From Dyella sp. OK004 (GTDB lineage: Bacteria > Pseudomonadota > Gammaproteobacteria > Xanthomonadales > Rhodanobacteraceae): 64,000 bases of DNA. Where the stretch lies: contig NZ_FOZI01000001.1 of the NCBI RefSeq assembly GCF_900114495.1, positions 143,469 through 207,468 of the forward strand, read 5' to 3'. The stretch's first letter is position 1. The number at the start of each line of letters is the position of its first letter. Positions 34,832-42,584 of this stretch are shown here, piece after piece. The position numbers and the translations under genes are program-made. The notes below the pieces were generated by a model. It was not told where the DNA came from and ran no database searches. It was given only the letters and a program-made list of their open reading frames with translations.

Positions 34832-35248
34832 ATGAAGAAAAGTATCGCTTCATTGACCATCGCTCTCGCTCTGGGAGCCTCCACCGCCATGGCGCAGGAA
34901 GCGCTCACCGAGCGTCAGGTGCATACGCAGCTCGAGCAGCAGGGTTACACCAAGATCCACGATCTGAAATTCACTGACGGCATGTGGCGAGCACGCGCCA
35001 AGAGCGCGGATGGCGCGCGTGTCGCAGTAAAAATCGACGCCAAGACCGGACAGGCTTATCCTGACGAACAGGTCTCGCGCCTCAGTGAGCGCGATGTGCG
35101 CGCAGCCCTTTCGACCGGGGGCTACACCCACGTGCATGACGTGGCGTACAAGGATGGCATGTGGAGGGCGAAGGCCGAGAACCCAGCCGGCGCCGACGTG
35201 AAATTACAGATCGATCCCGAGACCGGCCGCGTGATCGGCACCAACTGA
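34832..35248 (+). CDS. Tandem PepSY-domain periplasmic protein
   Basis: 138 aa from the ATG at 34832 with GAGGAAC in front. Signal peptide 1-21 (cut at AMA-QE). Two PepSY-like repeats: LTERQVHTQLEQQGYTKIHD...IDAKTGQ and LSERDVRAALSTGGYTHVHD...IDPETGRVIG, each with the same DGMWRA(R/K)A core. PepSY proteins are proposed to bind or inhibit peptidases or peptides in the envelope. Convergent with lanM. The upstream gap 34588-34831 must hold the two divergent promoters; none is obvious. Confidence 0.83.
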   Translation: MKKSIASLTIALALGASTAMAQEALTERQVHTQLEQQGYTKIHDLKFTDGMWRARAKSADGARVAVKIDAKTGQAYPDEQVSRLSERDVRAALSTGGYTHVHDVAYKDGMWRAKAENPAGADVKLQIDPETGRVIGTN

Positions 35249-35257
35249 CAACGTGAA

Positions 35258-35282
35258 GCCCGGGGGCATTCCGCCTCCGGGC
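35258..35282. terminator. Hairpin between convergent PepSY gene and lanM
   Basis: GCCCGGGGGC-ATT-CCGCCTCCGGGC, an imperfect 9-10 bp GC stem in the 45-nt gap between the two stop codons. No U-tract on either strand, so a weak or factor-assisted bidirectional terminator. Confidence 0.45.
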
Positions 35283-35293
35283 ATGCATTCGCA

Positions 35294-38176
35294 TCACTCC
35301 TGCCGACCCAGTGTGAGGATCGAAGGCAGCGTGCTTTCGGGATGTGCGCGAAGCAGCTGATAGGCGATGCCGCCCACGCCCGGCATCAGGCCCGGAGAGA
35401 AGGTATCGCGAACCATGCCGCAGATCGGGCCGTGATCTTCGATACTGGTCAGCCAGTGTGCCAGCAGCACTTCGTGGGACAGTCCGGCAGGCGCCTCGCC
35501 CGCCGTTATCGCAGCATCCAGCAGCTCCCACGCTGAAGCGTCGCCGTGACAGGCCGAGTGATTCCAGCCCAGGCCCTGACGCCATGCCGCCGCTGCGGCG
35601 CGCTGAAGCTGGGTACGTGTTTGCGCATGTTCTAGTGAGGGATCGAGATCAAGGTGTGCGAGGCCGATGCCGACGGCGCCGTGGCACCAAGCCGCGGCGG
35701 TCCTGGCACCGGGCAGCATGCGCAGGTCAAGCCAGTTGCGTTCGCTGTGGTCGTACAGCGCTTCTTCAAAAGCGAAAGCTGCCGTAGCCATGTCGCTATA
35801 TCGCTGCTCACCCGTTGCACGCGCTAGCTGGATCAATGCCCAGGCGATGCCGGTGACGCCGTGAGCGAAGCCGCCGACGCCATCGGGCCACTGCTCTTGT
35901 GTCCAACAGGCTTTGTCGCCGTCGCGGACGGCCCGTGCGCACAAACCGTCGCCGAGATCGCGCGCCATCTGCAGATAACGCGCATCGCCGGTGCGGCGCG
36001 CCAGCATCAACAGCGGAGGAATGGCTCCCGCGGCACCGGAGAGCACGTCCACCATATCGCTAGCTTTTATCGCCTCCGGCATCGCTTCGGCGAGCGTGCA
36101 GGCATGCGCAATACCGCCGTCGCGATCCATGCCCCAGTGCGCCAGGGTCAGCCACATCCAGATCAACGAACCCAAGCCGGAATAACCACCGAGCGGCAAC
36201 GGCCGCACCTTGAGCGTGTCGTGGCGCTGGCGCTCTGCCTTCTCAGCGAGCAGTTCGAGCGAGAACAGGGTTGCGGTCAGCAGTTCGTCGAGTCCTTCCA
36301 CGACATCGGCGCGCCCTGCCCCGGCTTCGCGCAGATAAGCGCCGATCAACAAGGCGACCCCGGACGTGCCGGCGTACAGATCCTGCGTCAACGGCTGCAC
36401 CGACCATCCCGTGACAGGGTCGAACACCGGTGCGATCCACGCCACGCTGCCATCGTCACCGCGGATGGCGGTAGCTACCAGATCTAGCATGATTTTCGCG
36501 GCCTGCGCGCGACGACGCGCATCGACGTCGCCCAGTCGCGCCTGCGTCGGCCAAAGCGATTCGTCACCCGGCATCCAGCCCTGATTGATGTACGCGCTGA
36601 TCAGCGTCGCTTTGATCACGCTGCGCTCCAGCTGCGGATCGATGCTGCGCCAGTGATCCAGTGCGGCATCCACCAGATTCAACGGCGGCAGCCACTGCGT
36701 GTCGCGCGGACCGTCCAGCCGCCCCTGTCGTGCCGTGGTTGAGAAGAAGGGAATGTCGCCTTCGAGCAGATCGCTGATCTCGGCTTCGATCACTTCCGGA
36801 TCGCCCGGAGCCACCGCGACATTGGCCGCCATGCGCGTCATCAGTTCGCGCGCACGTGCGGTCGCATTGGCTTCGTTATGCAGCGAGACCGGATGCCACA
36901 GCATGCGCGCCAGCTCGGCATAAACCTCAGTCGCGCGCGGCACGACGCGGATACGGCAATCAGCGAAGCGCTCCAGGCGTCCACGCAGCGCACCGTTGTC
37001 GTCGAGGCGACGCAAGGTCGCCGTCATACTGTCGAACGCATCCAGTACATCGGGCCAGAATCGCGACAGCACCGGCTTCGCGCTGGGGTGGTTCTGCGCT
37101 ATCGGTGCAGCGATCTTGATCGTGCCCAGGCGCGCTTCGTCCGTGCCGGCGTGGATGATGCTTGGCTGCTCCAGCATCGGCTGTTGTCCGGGCAATGAAC
37201 CCACGGCTGACGTATCCACGCCACGCCAGCCTAGTCCAAGTCCGCGTCCCGGCAGCATGCCGATACTTAGCACGGTGCCCGCCACCAGATCGGCGGCACC
37301 GTCGGCCGCCTGGCCATAGCCGGATGGTTTGCGCGGCAGCTTCGGCGTGAACAGCGTTTCGCAGTCGATCACCACTGGGCTGCCACCGTGAGCGATCAGA
37401 TTTTCCGCATGCAGATCGCTACCGCCGAGCAAACTCATGATCGCCAGCCAATGGCCGATGCCACGATAGAAATCACACAGCTCGTTATCGTCGGCGGCAT
37501 AGCGATGGCCAACGAATTCGGCCCAGCCATATTCCGTGCGCGTCACTACCCGCGGCACGCGGATGGTCAAAGCTTCGTCGTGATCGCCGGCAAGCGTTTC
37601 GATGAAATGGGCGAGCTCACGATCCGTCGCCATCGAGCGCGGCTTGTAGACGACCCGCCCGCCTTCGCAATGCAACAGGGCAACGGTCTGGCCGCGGCGA
37701 TGACTATCGCCCGCACCGAAGCTCAGTTTCAACAGGCGGCCTGCTTCGCCACCGCATAACATGTTCAGGCTGTCGCGATCGTGCGCCCAATGCTGCGCGA
37801 AACGCAGCGCGGCGTGGCAGCGATTGCGCACGATACTGCTAACCCGCACCAGCAATCGTGGGTAATGCGCGGCGAGGCCGGTCCAGAAATCCGGATGCGA
37901 GGACAGCGCGATGAAATGCGTCCACCGCTGTGCCGCATTCTCACCATGCAACACTCCTTCGGTGCGCGCGGCATGCAGCTCTACCAGCAGTACGCGGGTG
38001 AGCTTGGCATGCAGGATGGCGAGCAGAACCTCGCGCGTGCCAGCCAGAATGACCTCGCGCTCGCTTGCATGCAGGCCGGCGATTTCCGCTAGCTGGGTTG
38101 CCAGTCCGTCCAGCTCGGACGAATACAGGCAACCCAGTGAAGCGTCGAAATAGCCGGCGTCCGTGACGGACGCCAC
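35294..38176 (-). CDS. lanM: Class II lanthipeptide synthetase LanM
   Basis: 960 aa, full length; GTG start at 38176, 3 nt after the lanA stop. The N-terminal dehydratase domain (about 90-560) keeps the kinase-like residues: Lys178 in VVYKPRS, Asp254, His256 and Asn259 in GGSDLHAENL, and Asp271 in VIDCETLF. It phosphorylates and eliminates Ser/Thr in the precursor. The C-terminal LanC-like cyclase (about 610-960) keeps the zinc ligands Cys831 (WCHGAVGIG), Cys876 and His877 (SACHGDAS), which activate Cys for lanthionine formation. GxxG toroid repeats (YAGTSGVAL, FAHGVTGIA, MPGVGGIAY) are present. Both halves look catalytically intact. No lanT, protease, immunity or regulator gene is attached. 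Confidence 0.95.
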   Translation of the reverse strand: MASVTDAGYFDASLGCLYSSELDGLATQLAEIAGLHASEREVILAGTREVLLAILHAKLTRVLLVELHAARTEGVLHGENAAQRWTHFIALSSHPDFWTGLAAHYPRLLVRVSSIVRNRCHAALRFAQHWAHDRDSLNMLCGGEAGRLLKLSFGAGDSHRRGQTVALLHCEGGRVVYKPRSMATDRELAHFIETLAGDHDEALTIRVPRVVTRTEYGWAEFVGHRYAADDNELCDFYRGIGHWLAIMSLLGGSDLHAENLIAHGGSPVVIDCETLFTPKLPRKPSGYGQAADGAADLVAGTVLSIGMLPGRGLGLGWRGVDTSAVGSLPGQQPMLEQPSIIHAGTDEARLGTIKIAAPIAQNHPSAKPVLSRFWPDVLDAFDSMTATLRRLDDNGALRGRLERFADCRIRVVPRATEVYAELARMLWHPVSLHNEANATARARELMTRMAANVAVAPGDPEVIEAEISDLLEGDIPFFSTTARQGRLDGPRDTQWLPPLNLVDAALDHWRSIDPQLERSVIKATLISAYINQGWMPGDESLWPTQARLGDVDARRRAQAAKIMLDLVATAIRGDDGSVAWIAPVFDPVTGWSVQPLTQDLYAGTSGVALLIGAYLREAGAGRADVVEGLDELLTATLFSLELLAEKAERQRHDTLKVRPLPLGGYSGLGSLIWMWLTLAHWGMDRDGGIAHACTLAEAMPEAIKASDMVDVLSGAAGAIPPLLMLARRTGDARYLQMARDLGDGLCARAVRDGDKACWTQEQWPDGVGGFAHGVTGIAWALIQLARATGEQRYSDMATAAFAFEEALYDHSERNWLDLRMLPGARTAAAWCHGAVGIGLAHLDLDPSLEHAQTRTQLQRAAAAAWRQGLGWNHSACHGDASAWELLDAAITAGEAPAGLSHEVLLAHWLTSIEDHGPICGMVRDTFSPGLMPGVGGIAYQLLRAHPESTLPSILTLGRQE

Positions 38177-38179
38177 GCG

Positions 38180-38362
38180 TCAGCAGCAGTAGCGGGTGTG
38201 TGAGCCCGTACAGGCCGTGCCGCATCCACCGAAGGTCGTCAGCGAACTCGCTTCGCTGATGATCTCGGCCTCAGCGAACTGACCACCCGTGAACAGCGGG
38301 CCAGCCGGGTTGTGCTCATCAGCCTCGTTGCGGAGCTGGGCAATGCGATCTGCGTTTTCCAT
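38180..38362 (-). CDS. lanA: Class II lanthipeptide precursor peptide LanA
   Basis: 60 aa. The leader is hydrophilic and acidic (residues 1-38) with RNE...NPAG (18-21), a motif seen in class II leaders, and an internal Gly-Gly at 26-27. The C-terminal core is rich in Ser/Thr and Cys: Ser39, Ser40, Thr42, Thr43, Thr49, Thr52, Ser54, Thr56 and Cys47, Cys51, Cys59, Cys60. A second Gly-Gly lies at 45-46 just before Cys47; the protein ends in two adjacent Cys. A strong ribosome-binding site (AGAGGTAA) lies 4 nt before the ATG. The adjoining lanM and near-zero spacing support the call. Not a nitrile-hydratase-like or Nif11-type leader. Cleavage site and rings cannot be read from sequence. Confidence 0.9.
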   Translation of the reverse strand: MENADRIAQLRNEADEHNPAGPLFTGGQFAEAEIISEASSLTTFGGCGTACTGSHTRYCC

Positions 38363-38383
38363 GGCTTACCTCTTTGACAGGTC

Positions 38384-38412
38384 TTAGGAAAAGAACCGTG
38401 CCGTGAGGTCAA
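38384..38412 (-). promoter_or_regulatory. Candidate promoter of lanA-lanM
   Basis: Minus strand TTGACC, 17-nt spacer, TCCTAA: a good -35 and a poor -10, about 20 nt before the ribosome-binding site. The 325-bp gap to the M28 peptidase gene must also hold that gene's promoter; I see nothing else in it. Confidence 0.35.
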
Positions 38413-38687
38413 GAGAAAGCGGAGGCGGCGCGCACAACCATGTGCGTTATGTCGAGCCGTCACATCCCGTAACCCCTGCCGACACGCCGTGGGAGGTCGA
38501 ACGCAGCCTCCCGGAGGGCATGGTAGGAACCGGCATGCATGCATTTTGTGATGCAGTTCCGCTGGCCTTCCGCTGCCATGCAGCAGTCCGGACCCCTGCT
38601 CCACCCGGCTTCCGATTCGCAAGAAAGTGGACCCGCGCACCACCAGCTATCTACTATCGGCGGCGAACTTCCCCACAGGTAACGCCA

Positions 38688-40340
38688 GTGAAACGACTCG
38701 CCCTTTCCGTGCTCGCCCTGTCCATCGCCTCCGCCGTGATGGCCATCGATGCCCCGACGTTCGACCCGCACCGCCTTTCCACCGACGTCAAGACGCTCTC
38801 CTCCGATGCCTTCGAGGGCCGCGGCCCGGCGACCGCCGGCGAGACCAAGACCATCGATTACCTGATCGCGCAGTACAAGGCGGCCGGGCTGCAGCCGGGC
38901 GGCGACCTGAAGAACGGCAAGCGCGCCTGGACCCAGGCGGTGCCGCTGCTGCGTGCGGAAATCACCGGTACGCCGTCGCTGTCGGTAAAACTGGACGGCA
39001 AGTCGCAGACGCTGACCCAGGGCGAACAGATCGCCGTGCGCGCCCCGATGGATGGCTCCAAGTCCGTGTCGATCGCCGATGCGCCGCTGGTGTTCGTTGG
39101 CTACGGCGTGAAGGCACCAGAGCGCAACTGGGACGACTTCAAGGGCGTGGACCTGCACGGCAAGATCGCCGTGGTACTGATCAACGACCCTGACTTCGAA
39201 ACCGGCGTGGGCGACTTCGGCGGCAAGGCCATGACCTACTACGGCCGCTGGACCTATAAGTATGAGGAGGCCGCGCGCCAGGGCGCCGCGGGCGTGCTGA
39301 TCGTGCACGAGACCGAGCCGGCCTCCTACGGCTGGAACACGGTGAAGAACTCCAACACCAATGCGATGTTCGACATCGTGCGCGACAAGCCGTCGTCGGT
39401 GCATCCGCAAGTCGAGGCGTGGATCCAGCGCGACTTCGCCGTCGATCTGTTCAAGCATGCCGGCCTGGATTTCGAGGCGCTGAAGAAGCAGGCGCAGACG
39501 CGCGAGTTCAAGCCGATCGTACTGAAAGGCGAAACCTTCTCAGCCAACTACAAGGTGGACAGCAAGGTGATCACCTCGCACAACGTGGTTGGTCGCATCG
39601 ACGGCAGCAAGCGGCCCGACGAGACCGTGATCTATAGCGCGCACTGGGATCACCTTGGCGTCGGCGCGCCGGACGCGAAGGGAGACCGCATCTACAACGG
39701 TGCCGTGGATAACGGCACCGGCACCGCCGCGCTGATCGAGCTGGCGCGCGCTTTCAAGAAGGCACCCAAGCCCGAACGCTCCATCGTGTTTCTCAACGTC
39801 ACGGCAGAGGAAAAGGGCCTGCTAGGCTCGGAGTACTACGCCGCGAACCCGCTGTACCCGCTTGGCAAGACCGTGGGCGTGATCAACCTTGATGCACTCG
39901 ACCCGCACGGTCCGGCGCGCAACTTCACCATCTCCGGCAGCGCCAAACTCGACCTGCTCGATGAGCTGATCGCCACCGCGAAGAAATGGGACCTGGTCTA
40001 TTCGCCCGATCCGAAGCCGGAAGCCGGCCACTTCTTCCGCTCTGACCACTTCTCCTTCGCCAAGCGCGGCGTGCCGGCCATCTCCTTCGGCTCAGGCAAC
40101 GACTGGGTGGATGGCGGCCTAGCCGCTGGCAAGAAAGCCGAAGACGAGTACACCGACAAGCATTACCACCAGCCGTCGGATGAGTGGGAGGCTGGCTGGT
40201 CGTTCACCGGCATGGCGCGCGACCTGCAAATCCTCTACACACTCGGCGGCGACCTCGCCAACTCGGATCGCTGGCCGGACTGGAGCAAGGACTCGGAGTT
40301 CCGTGCCGCTCGCGATGCGAGTGCATCCGAACGCAAATAA
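38688..40340 (+). CDS. Secreted M28-family metallopeptidase with PA domain
   Basis: 550 aa from the GTG at 38688 (KRLALSVLAL...), chosen because a Sec signal peptide (1-19) starts there; the in-frame upstream extension looks non-coding. A protease-associated insert (about 120-290; LVFVGYGVKAPERNWDDFKGVDLHGKI in pieces) precedes the dinuclear zinc peptidase domain with YSAHWDHLG, GAVDNGTGTAALIELAR, TAEEKGLLGSEYY and the late SDHFSFAKRGVPAISFGSG. Probably a periplasmic or secreted aminopeptidase. Divergent from lanA; there is no direct evidence that it trims the lanthipeptide, as such peptidases are common in this order. Confidence 0.9.
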   Translation: MKRLALSVLALSIASAVMAIDAPTFDPHRLSTDVKTLSSDAFEGRGPATAGETKTIDYLIAQYKAAGLQPGGDLKNGKRAWTQAVPLLRAEITGTPSLSVKLDGKSQTLTQGEQIAVRAPMDGSKSVSIADAPLVFVGYGVKAPERNWDDFKGVDLHGKIAVVLINDPDFETGVGDFGGKAMTYYGRWTYKYEEAARQGAAGVLIVHETEPASYGWNTVKNSNTNAMFDIVRDKPSSVHPQVEAWIQRDFAVDLFKHAGLDFEALKKQAQTREFKPIVLKGETFSANYKVDSKVITSHNVVGRIDGSKRPDETVIYSAHWDHLGVGAPDAKGDRIYNGAVDNGTGTAALIELARAFKKAPKPERSIVFLNVTAEEKGLLGSEYYAANPLYPLGKTVGVINLDALDPHGPARNFTISGSAKLDLLDELIATAKKWDLVYSPDPKPEAGHFFRSDHFSFAKRGVPAISFGSGNDWVDGGLAAGKKAEDEYTDKHYHQPSDEWEAGWSFTGMARDLQILYTLGGDLANSDRWPDWSKDSEFRAARDASASERK

Positions 40341-40392: not shown

Positions 40393-40427
40393 TCGCATCC
40401 GGACATCGTCATCGAATGGAAGCCATC

Positions 40428-42584
40428 ATGAATGCAAGTCTTGCAAGGATCGCCACCGGTCTCATGGTCATCACGAGCCTCGGCCAAACCGCCCATGCGC
40501 AGAGCACCGCCGTCGAGGGCATGAGTTGGAAGATCGAATCCGCCGCCTTGTTTCCAAACGACCTTGGGCCGGCCGCCAAGGCAAAGGAGCCGATCCTGGT
40601 GTGGAGCACCAAGAATGGCGAGAAGGTCGCCACGGAGGTGCATCTACTCGTCGAAGCGCCGTACGACAAAATCCAGCCGGCCGTGCAAAAGGCGCTGGCT
40701 ACGTTTGGCGCATTCACTTCTGACACCGGAAACTACACGCCAGCCTACCAGTCCGACGGCTGGTCCGAGGTACTGCTGTCGCGCCGGCCCGATATTCGCA
40801 ATGCACTTGCAACTCGTTTTGAGGAGCCTCGTCTACAATTGGCGGTGAAGGAAGGCGCACTCACCGCTGACGAGATGGCGCGACGACTCGCCCAAGCAAG
40901 CGCCAGGGTCGAATCGTTACCGCAGGACAGCACCACCATTGATGCGATCCCTACCAAATATCCGAGTTACTACGCGCAACAGGAGCGCAGCTACGGACTG
41001 ACTGGTAAACGGAGCAGCAAGCTATCCATCCGCGTTTTTGATGTCTCGGCCGCCTTCGGACACCCGGCAACCAGCGTGCGCATCAGCCGCGTAGACAGCT
41101 ATCCCAACCCAAAGTACGGCCTGCTGAAGAGCTGGCGCGACTTCAATGTGCTGAGCACAGGCCCATCACCCACATTGAGCGATGGCGTGGTGCCCGCGCC
41201 TGTGTTCGAAGCTGTGCGCAGCGCTCTTGTCGCGGCGGCCGATGGGCATGCGGTGAGCATCGCGCCTACACCGACGGCCTGGGTGATACCGGCCGACCTG
41301 ACCGCGCAGGTACCGGCATTCGCACTGACCGCGCCAAGCAGCGACGCACCCGCATTGGAAGCGCAGACAATCCGCTGGGATACCCTCATCGGTACAGAGC
41401 GCGACCAGCGTTATCCACACGACCTGCTCACCCTGCCCGATGGCGATCTGATGCTGAGTGCCGAAATTTCGGACGACAGCGGCCGGCCACAAGGGGTGTG
41501 GCGGCTGCACGACGCCAACGGCGAGTGGAAAGTGGAGAGTGTTTGGCGCGGTGGCAAAGGCGCCCGCCAGCTTGCACTCAGTGCAGACGGGCGCACTGTG
41601 TGGTTCTCCGGCAGCACCGCGCAAGACGATCCAGCGCAGATGCACGCTTACGACGTGGCAACGCGCCGGCTCGCCAGTTTCACCCTGAATCTGCCCGACA
41701 CCGCCAGTGGCAGGGACTGGCACTGGGAGCTGGCCGACGATCAACTGCCCGCGATCTTCGATCATCAATCTGCATCACTGTTCGATCGCGACAAGGCGAA
41801 CGCCAACAAGCTTGGCGACGAACAACTGATCGTGCTGCGGCCGGCGACACCGCCACCTGCAGCCGGCGGTACCTGGCCGTTCAAGCTCTCGGTCTCGTCC
41901 GTCCGTCAGTCCATGATGAATGTGCGGATGAAGGGCAACACCTATATCTGGCCCGTACGCTGGCGCGGCGCCGAGACGTTCTGGACCGAAGACCAGCTCG
42001 GTATCGCCGAACTGGATGCTGCCAACGGCCGCGTGCTGCGTGCGCTGCCTGTACCACAGCGCGACGGCACGCCCGACCGCAACGACGCCAGTGGCGTAGC
42101 GCCATGGGTACCCACGCCGCTGGGTTCGCCAGAGGCCGGCTGGATCGCCAGTGGCTTCGTACTCATGCTGACCGACGACGGCAGCATGCCGCCCAAGCTC
42201 GACGGCGACGCGAACCGCAACGATCGTTTCGTCGGTATGCACGTGATCAACCTGAAGGACGGTCGTGTGCACCTGTCCGCCTTGCTTGGCCGTGCCGACA
42301 CCTTGCGAGCCGCCGCACGTTCTGCCAACGGGCGCCTGCTGGCCATTGGCTCCAACGGCATCAAGCCACGCGGCCCCAAGGTCGTGCTGTGGGATGTCGC
42401 CAAGGCGCAAACGCCTGTACAGCTCAGCACATCGGCGCGCGGCGAACCGCATGCGCTGGCTTTCTCATGGAACGGCTCCGACCTATGGGCGCTGGGTAGT
42501 CGCGAACTGTTGCACTGGCACCTGCCTGATGCGCTCAAGGATGCTGCCACGCGGGGAAGCTTTCCTGATCAGTCGCACGACTGA
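40428..42584 (+). CDS. Large exported protein of unknown function, beta-propeller-like
   Basis: 718 aa from the ATG at 40428 (GGAAG 6 nt before it; an ATG at 40416 is also in frame). Signal peptide 1-24 ending AHA-QS. The first 300 residues have no family I recognise. From about 320 onward there are repeated blade-like units (LLTLPDGDLMLSAEISDDSG, ARQLALSADGRTVWFSGS, ARSANGRLLAIGSNG, HALAFSWNGSDLWALGS) suggesting a periplasmic beta-propeller of WD40/YncE type. Only 87 nt after the M28 gene and same strand, but a stem-loop intervenes. Confidence 0.65.
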   Translation: MNASLARIATGLMVITSLGQTAHAQSTAVEGMSWKIESAALFPNDLGPAAKAKEPILVWSTKNGEKVATEVHLLVEAPYDKIQPAVQKALATFGAFTSDTGNYTPAYQSDGWSEVLLSRRPDIRNALATRFEEPRLQLAVKEGALTADEMARRLAQASARVESLPQDSTTIDAIPTKYPSYYAQQERSYGLTGKRSSKLSIRVFDVSAAFGHPATSVRISRVDSYPNPKYGLLKSWRDFNVLSTGPSPTLSDGVVPAPVFEAVRSALVAAADGHAVSIAPTPTAWVIPADLTAQVPAFALTAPSSDAPALEAQTIRWDTLIGTERDQRYPHDLLTLPDGDLMLSAEISDDSGRPQGVWRLHDANGEWKVESVWRGGKGARQLALSADGRTVWFSGSTAQDDPAQMHAYDVATRRLASFTLNLPDTASGRDWHWELADDQLPAIFDHQSASLFDRDKANANKLGDEQLIVLRPATPPPAAGGTWPFKLSVSSVRQSMMNVRMKGNTYIWPVRWRGAETFWTEDQLGIAELDAANGRVLRALPVPQRDGTPDRNDASGVAPWVPTPLGSPEAGWIASGFVLMLTDDGSMPPKLDGDANRNDRFVGMHVINLKDGRVHLSALLGRADTLRAAARSANGRLLAIGSNGIKPRGPKVVLWDVAKAQTPVQLSTSARGEPHALAFSWNGSDLWALGSRELLHWHLPDALKDAATRGSFPDQSHD

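What the first reader, a model, noticed from the sequence alone, without database searches (positions are those of the whole stretch)
35294..38362. Minimal class II lanthipeptide locus (lanA-lanM) in a gammaproteobacterium
A 60-residue Ser/Thr/Cys-tailed peptide gene ends 3 nt before a full-length LanM. All dehydratase residues (Lys178, Asp254, His256, Asn259, Asp271) and cyclase zinc ligands (Cys831, Cys876, His877) are present, so the pair should make a lanthionine peptide. Lanthipeptides are described mostly from Firmicutes and Actinobacteria; proteobacterial examples are few and mostly unstudied. The product is not one I recognise.
Basis: partly seen in the sequence, partly recalled or inferred. 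Interest (0 to 1): 0.9.

Follow-up and report, generated by a model that had tools for sequence, protein, structure and literature searches.

The report
Rhodanocin-like lanthipeptide gene pair
A Dyella-like bacterium carries two neighbouring genes that very probably make a small ring-containing peptide of a family first described in 2022; it is a real but fairly ordinary new member, lacking the export gene that its nearest relatives have.

Summary
A 60-residue precursor gene (38180-38362, minus) ends 3 nt before a complete LanM (35294-38176, minus). The precursor is Pfam DUF6229. That family is already known to be class II lanthipeptide precursors: PMC9576775 (2022) expressed one from Dyella sp. 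333MFSha in E. coli, solved its rings by NMR and named the rhodanocins. A 2024 Lysobacter survey found 21 of 27 class II precursors to be DUF6229. Neither chemistry nor phylum is new.

What adds to that: (1) the core belongs to a sister group, CGTAC[T/S]GSx4CC with four Cys, whose rings I found no report of; it occurs in four phyla, a looser form in five. (2) Four congeners have the empty site: a 3.2-kb gain here, or loss elsewhere. (3) All three mates in its LanM clade carry a C39-less ABC exporter after lanM; the window has none and the genome's best match is 32% identical. (4) The genome holds a second DUF6229-LanM pair. Export and leader removal are unexplained.

The parts
38180..38362 (-). 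lanA: 60-aa precursor, DUF6229 (PF19740); leader with NPAGPLF motif, core CGTACTGSHTRYCC at the C-terminus
38180..38224 (-). core motif with stop codon: residues 47-60 CGTACTGSHTRYCC (Cys47, 51, 59, 60; possible donors Thr49, Thr52, Ser54, Thr56), shared across phyla
35294..38176 (-). lanM: 960-aa class II lanthipeptide synthetase, GTG start 3 nt after lanA stop
38369..38372 (-). GAGG Shine-Dalgarno-like site before lanA
   Evidence: read
35249..38422 (.). outer limits of the stretch absent from four congeners (empty site between the PepSY gene and the M28 peptidase gene)
34844..35248 (+). downstream flank: PepSY_2 protein (PF13670), next to the M28 gene in 4 congeners
38688..40340 (+). upstream flank, divergent: M28 peptidase (PF04389; ORF listed from 38403, likely start GTG 38688); beside the PepSY gene, without lanA-lanM, in 4 congeners

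Best explanation
A two-gene class II lanthipeptide cassette of the DUF6229 (rhodanocin) kind. LanM would bind the conserved leader (W/L-R...NPAGPLF..G.FAEA-D/E-I), phosphorylate and eliminate Ser/Thr in the C-terminal core with its DUF4135 dehydratase domain, and add the Cys thiols with its zinc LanC domain, giving a compact peptide with up to four thioether rings over CGTACTGSHTRYCC. By analogy with rhodanocin (rings T6-C11, C8-S14, T12-C23), the likely bridges are Thr42/43 to Cys51, Cys47 to Ser54, and Thr52 to Cys59 or Cys60; the fourth Cys would use Thr49 or Thr56. The cassette sits as a 3.2-kb insertion between two genes that are neighbours in congeners. It lacks the ABC exporter of its sister loci, so the product would leave by an unlinked exporter or stay inside. 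Shown: gene pair, families, catalytic residues, conservation, empty site, no close exporter. Inferred: modification, ring pattern, export, activity.
For: Families and residues. A DUF6229 precursor and its LanM co-expressed in E. coli gave 4 dehydrations and 3 rings (PMC9576775). lanA next to lanM in 75 of the 75 named loci that hold upstream sequence, and in 94 of 94 lanA hits in unnamed loci, duplicate loci included. Core pattern found in five phyla. Empty site in 4 of 4 other congeners that have the PepSY flank gene; a fifth had no PepSY hit. Starred LanM clade of four: window, Rhodanobacteraceae ZG21-1, Luteibacter anthropi, Dyella sp. S184; in the other three the exporter match starts 102-111 nt after the end of the lanM match.
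Against: No product has been seen. No leader protease or exporter was recognised in the locus (the adjacent M28 peptidase belongs to the host background), and the genome's only C39 peptidase hit is a small protein elsewhere. The best genomic match to the sister exporter is at 32% identity. Rhodanocin itself was only weakly active (MIC 126 uM on Klebsiella after a non-native cut), so antibiotic activity is not a given. The bridge assignment rests on analogy with a core of different Cys spacing.
Confidence: 0.87

Rival explanations
1. The pair is decaying: having lost its exporter, it makes a modified peptide that is never released, and it is on its way out.
For: The exporter present in all three clade mates has no hit in the window and no close homologue in the genome; patchy presence, 42 of 233 family genomes.
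Against: Both frames are open, all catalytic residues tested and the four-Cys core are intact, the start/stop coupling is kept, and GC and third-position GC are host-like. 36 of 71 named loci with room downstream show neither of the two exporter types tested, although three of these (L061, L073, L089) hold a more distant ABC transporter in the stretch; so pairs without a close exporter persist.
Confidence: 0.15
2. The product is not an antibiotic but a conserved signal or metal/host-interaction peptide, since the ring-forming core is kept over five phyla whereas antibiotic cores usually diversify.
For: 40 distinct window-type peptides from Pseudomonadota, Myxococcota, Actinomycetota, Acidobacteriota and Verrucomicrobiota; no immunity gene recognised among the neighbours scanned.
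Against: The 40 were selected by a pattern that fixes the Cys columns, so only the freedom that the pattern left counts (G48, T49, S54 and the open columns A50, T56, R57, of which the last three do vary); 79 of the 119 distinct peptides have other cores, so the family as a whole does diversify; a relative had measurable though weak antibacterial activity.
Confidence: 0.2
3. The precursor is a chance ORF and LanM works on another substrate elsewhere in the genome.
For: LanMs acting on distant substrates are known from recall (prochlorosins).
Against: DUF6229 hit at 3.6e-16; every testable named relative has the precursor beside lanM; the only other DUF6229 gene over the cut-off in the genome has its own LanM.
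Confidence: 0.01

Closest known systems
Rhodanocin (LanII, Dyella sp. 333MFSha, listed among Luteibacter mycovicinus strains; PMC9576775, PMC11165876)
   Same: Same precursor family DUF6229, class II synthetase, same bacterial family; shared C..C-T-x-S element; its leader was not cut by the double-Gly protease LahT150 and was removed with AspN instead.
   Different: Rhodanocin pattern T.C..CT.S...T....C has two residues between the first two Cys; the window core has four Cys, three residues between the first two, and ends in CC. LanMs next to the five rhodanocin-pattern loci of group g11 are 52-53% identical to this one; a sixth, an Acidobacteriales MAG (L067), is 60%. The 333MFSha peptide letters themselves were not seen; the pattern was rebuilt from the NMR residue numbers.
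DUF6229 lanthipeptides of Lysobacter (PMC11451712)
   Same: Class II, mostly DUF6229; [quoted passage not shown]
   Different: Sequences are in a figure and supplement not read, so I cannot say whether the CGTAC[T/S]GS core is one of the six.
lanA-lanM-exporter loci of Dyella sp. S184, Rhodanobacteraceae ZG21-1 and Luteibacter anthropi (L056, L055, L066)
   Same: Nearest LanMs in the tree (59-67% identity) and the same core motif CGTACTGSxTRxCC.
   Different: They carry an MsbA-like ABC exporter without C39 domain right after lanM; absent here.

Membership tests
Class II lanthipeptide synthetase (LanM) | DUF4135 dehydratase plus LanC-like cyclase in one chain, above curated cut-off | tested here: met
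   TIGR03897 592.4 vs 304; PF13575, PF05147
Class II lanthipeptide synthetase (LanM) | Dehydratase residues and zinc ligands present | tested here: met
   9 of 9 columns tested invariant in 22 LanMs, window included; role of residues from established knowledge of CylM (recall)
Class II lanthipeptide synthetase (LanM) | Dehydration and thioether formation | not testable with these tools
   Needs co-expression and MS
DUF6229 precursor family (PF19740) | Profile score above gathering cut-off | tested here: met
   59.3 bits vs 25; 0 of 14 control genomes over the cut-off
DUF6229 precursor family (PF19740) | Adjacent lanM | tested here: met
Rhodanocin proper | Core pattern T.C..CT.S...T....C (from NMR residue numbers) | tested here: not met
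   Window core GGCGTACTGSHTRYCC lacks it; 6 of 119 distinct peptides match, 5 of them from group g11, which holds Luteibacter
Rhodanocin proper | Ring pattern T6-C11, C8-S14, T12-C23 | not testable with these tools
   Needs NMR or MS/MS
Lantibiotic cluster with LanT (C39 peptidase-ABC exporter) | LanT in the cluster or genome | tested here: not met
   One C39 hit in the genome, in a 229-aa ORF on another contig, too short for an ABC exporter
Lantibiotic | Antibacterial activity | not testable with these tools
   No assay

The most novel reading that the evidence does not exclude
The CGTAC[T/S]GSx4CC core is a separate ring system, found beside lanM in at least four phyla (a looser form in five) because it binds one conserved target, and it spreads as a compact lanA-lanM cassette that can do without its own exporter and leader protease by borrowing host ones.
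Probability: 0.25. Interest if true: 0.55.

Novelty: new member of a known kind. Interest (0 to 1): 0.33.

Why it matters
It extends a little-studied family of Gram-negative lanthipeptides with a four-Cys core whose rings I found no report of (searches: open-access papers only). The precursor is small and the LanM complete, so the ring pattern, the missing export step and the biological role can be tested directly in E. coli. The core's spread over phyla asks what conserved target it meets.

Tried and rejected
Rejected: a chance ORF for lanA. A dedicated peptidase next door: the divergent M28 gene is a neighbour of the PepSY gene in four congeners without lanA-lanM between them, and its only other hit among the loci compared lies over 5 kb from lanM in L052, so its adjacency looks like host background. 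A foreign base composition: GC and GC3 of lanM and lanA are like most neighbours (the M28 GC3 there was computed in a wrong frame and is not used). Direct repeats at the insertion ends: none found. Conserved neighbours other than lanA: among 22 loci the widest family besides LanM was an ABC transporter family in 7 (identified). Structure prediction was not run; it would add little for a LanM.

Led nowhere: NCBIfam has no model that matches the precursor at E up to 1. I could not see the letters of the 333MFSha precursor or the Lysobacter families (supplements not available). PMC7268733 was searched for terms only and gave nothing on this group.

Limits: the 40 'window-type' peptides were picked by a pattern that fixes the Cys positions, so those columns are circular. 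119 counts distinct peptides from the loci held, not species, and the profile used was built from 20 of them. Two weak DUF6229 matches under the cut-off (L007, 16.7 bits; L031, 22.6 bits) were dropped before the counts; L079 is missing from the 119 because its frame was too long for the script. The tree is a quick one with long branches flagged; of 12 relatives listed in the script (Corallococcus, one Myxococcaceae MAG, Streptomyces) 10 were left out on purpose, and two rhodanocin-pattern loci (L164, L166) were not included. The exporter test looks for two types only; L059, L061, L073 and L089 hold a more distant ABC transporter (33-40% identity) in the stretch.

Full report
Observation. lanA (38180-38362, minus strand) encodes MENADRIAQLRNEADEHNPAGPLFTGGQFAEAEIISEASSLTTFGGCGTACTGSHTRYCC and its TGA lies 3 nt before the GTG of lanM (35294-38176, minus). 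LanM is complete: TIGR03897 592.4 bits over residues 38-944, DUF4135 and LANC_like domains, solved relatives LicM2 and CylM.

What the precursor is. NCBIfam gives nothing, but Pfam gives DUF6229 (PF19740) at 3.6e-16. Full-text search for DUF6229 returned two papers. PMC9576775 (Nat Commun 2022; I read passages and sections 9 and 15) expressed a refactored class II cluster from Dyella sp. 333MFSha, with a DUF6229 precursor, in E. coli: four dehydrations, three rings (Thr6-Cys11, Cys8-Ser14, Thr12-Cys23, Dhb18), MIC 126 uM on K. pneumoniae after AspN cutting. It calls this and a Pseudomonas product the first characterised gammaproteobacterial lanthipeptides, proposes the name rhodanocins and says DUF6229 covers at least two ring types. 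PMC11451712 (preprint 2024, passages) finds 21 of 27 unique Lysobacter class II precursors to be DUF6229, with the precursors falling into six families. PMC11165876 (passages) lists 333MFSha among Luteibacter mycovicinus strains. A search for 'rhodanocin' returned only the 2022 paper; other searches (and with Dyella, Xanthomonas and Lysobacter; listings only apart from the papers named) showed me no structure for the window-type core. This is a statement about an open-access library only.

Place in the family. One scan of named genomes gave 198 relatives of LanM, of which the best 80 were kept. An ORF matching my DUF6229 profile lies directly upstream in 74 of 80 by script and in a 75th on reading; the other five loci start inside or just before lanM. 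In unnamed loci 94 of 94 lanA hits (duplicates included) have lanM behind them. In the window's taxonomic family 42 of 233 genomes (40 of 192 of the more complete ones) and 13 of 26 genera have DUF6229: patchy. Among 119 distinct lanA peptides, 40 fit the window-type pattern C[GS][TSA].C[TS].[ST]....CC, 17 the strict CGTAC[TS]GS....CC, 26 a CS.C[TS].[ST]....CC type and 6 the rhodanocin pattern. The strict type occurs in Pseudomonadota, Myxococcota, Actinomycetota (one) and Verrucomicrobiota (one MAG); the looser window type adds Acidobacteriota (one MAG). In columns where the pattern left a choice, G48 is G in 40 of 40, T49 is T in 37 and S in 3, S54 is S in 40; the open columns A50, H55, T56, R57 and Y58 vary. 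So the window peptide is a sister of rhodanocin, not a rhodanocin by core pattern.

LanM tree (quick, 79 rows). The window groups with ZG21-1 and Luteibacter anthropi (96, starred) and then Dyella sp. S184 (99, starred). Four of five Myxococcota rows and all Acidobacteriota and Verrucomicrobiota rows lie on the same side of the tree as the window, among Pseudomonadota; Pseudomonadota need at least 5 changes on starred branches. This suggests transfer but is no proof of it.

Exporter. A gene for an ABC half-transporter with no C39 domain (closest NCBIfam model MsbA, far below its cut-off; PF00005) follows lanM within 800 nt in 28 of 71 named loci with at least 1.5 kb downstream (9 of 80 had less; L093 just misses the distance rule), and in 16 of the 28 a berberine-bridge-type FAD oxidoreductase lies in the locus too; 6 loci have another type, near the cyclic-peptide exporter model; 36 have none of these by this test, though L061, L073 and L089 among them hold a more distant ABC transporter. 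The three clade mates of the window all have the first type. The 64-kb window has no hit, and the best match in its genome is 32% identical against 57% and 71% for L. anthropi and ZG21-1 to the Dyella sp. S184 protein. The genome's single C39 hit is a 229-aa protein elsewhere (its likeness to FapD is my recall). Thus no recognised exporter or leader protease is encoded with the pair.

Empty site. In the four other congeners that have the downstream PepSY gene, the M28 gene follows it at 117-390 nt with no lanA-lanM between; the fifth had no PepSY hit. In the window the same genes are 3.44 kb apart. The added stretch lies within 35249-38422 and holds lanA and lanM; there are no end repeats and its composition is host-like. 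Gain here or loss in the others cannot be told apart with certainty.

Second pair. G000 also holds LanM2 and a DUF6229 precursor ending ATTVSCGGFGGCDCC on another contig (L003 6713-9595 and 9637-9840), its LanM 40% identical, in the other main branch of the tree.

Verdict. A real, probably functional class II lanthipeptide pair; a new member of a known kind.

Noticed in passing
L003:6713-9840: Second DUF6229-LanM pair in the same genome with a different core (SATTVSCGGFGGCDCC) and neither exporter type in its 16-kb stretch.
   Followed up: partly
L057:10772-12214 and 15 further named loci: A berberine-bridge-type FAD oxidoreductase (PF01565, PF08031) accompanies the exporter in 16 of 28 exporter-bearing loci; it may add an oxidative modification to the lanthipeptide. 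No hit in the window.
   Followed up: partly
L162-L166: Five genomes of the group that holds Luteibacter carry rhodanocin-pattern precursors; four of the five (L163-L166) have a second, longer DUF6229 precursor (ending RTRH..CGA) in the same stretch.
   Followed up: no
L058 and L106: LanM of 'Comamonas sp. KCTC 72670' nests with Myxococcus, and that of 'Rhodococcus rhodnii NRRL B-16535' is nearly identical to Kibdelosporangium; the records may be misnamed or mixed.
   Followed up: no
L135:5598-6287: Small C39 peptidase beside proteins that look (from recall) like a Fap functional-amyloid operon.
   Followed up: no
window 40416-42584: 722-aa protein downstream of the M28 gene without any Pfam match at E up to 0.001.
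   Followed up: no
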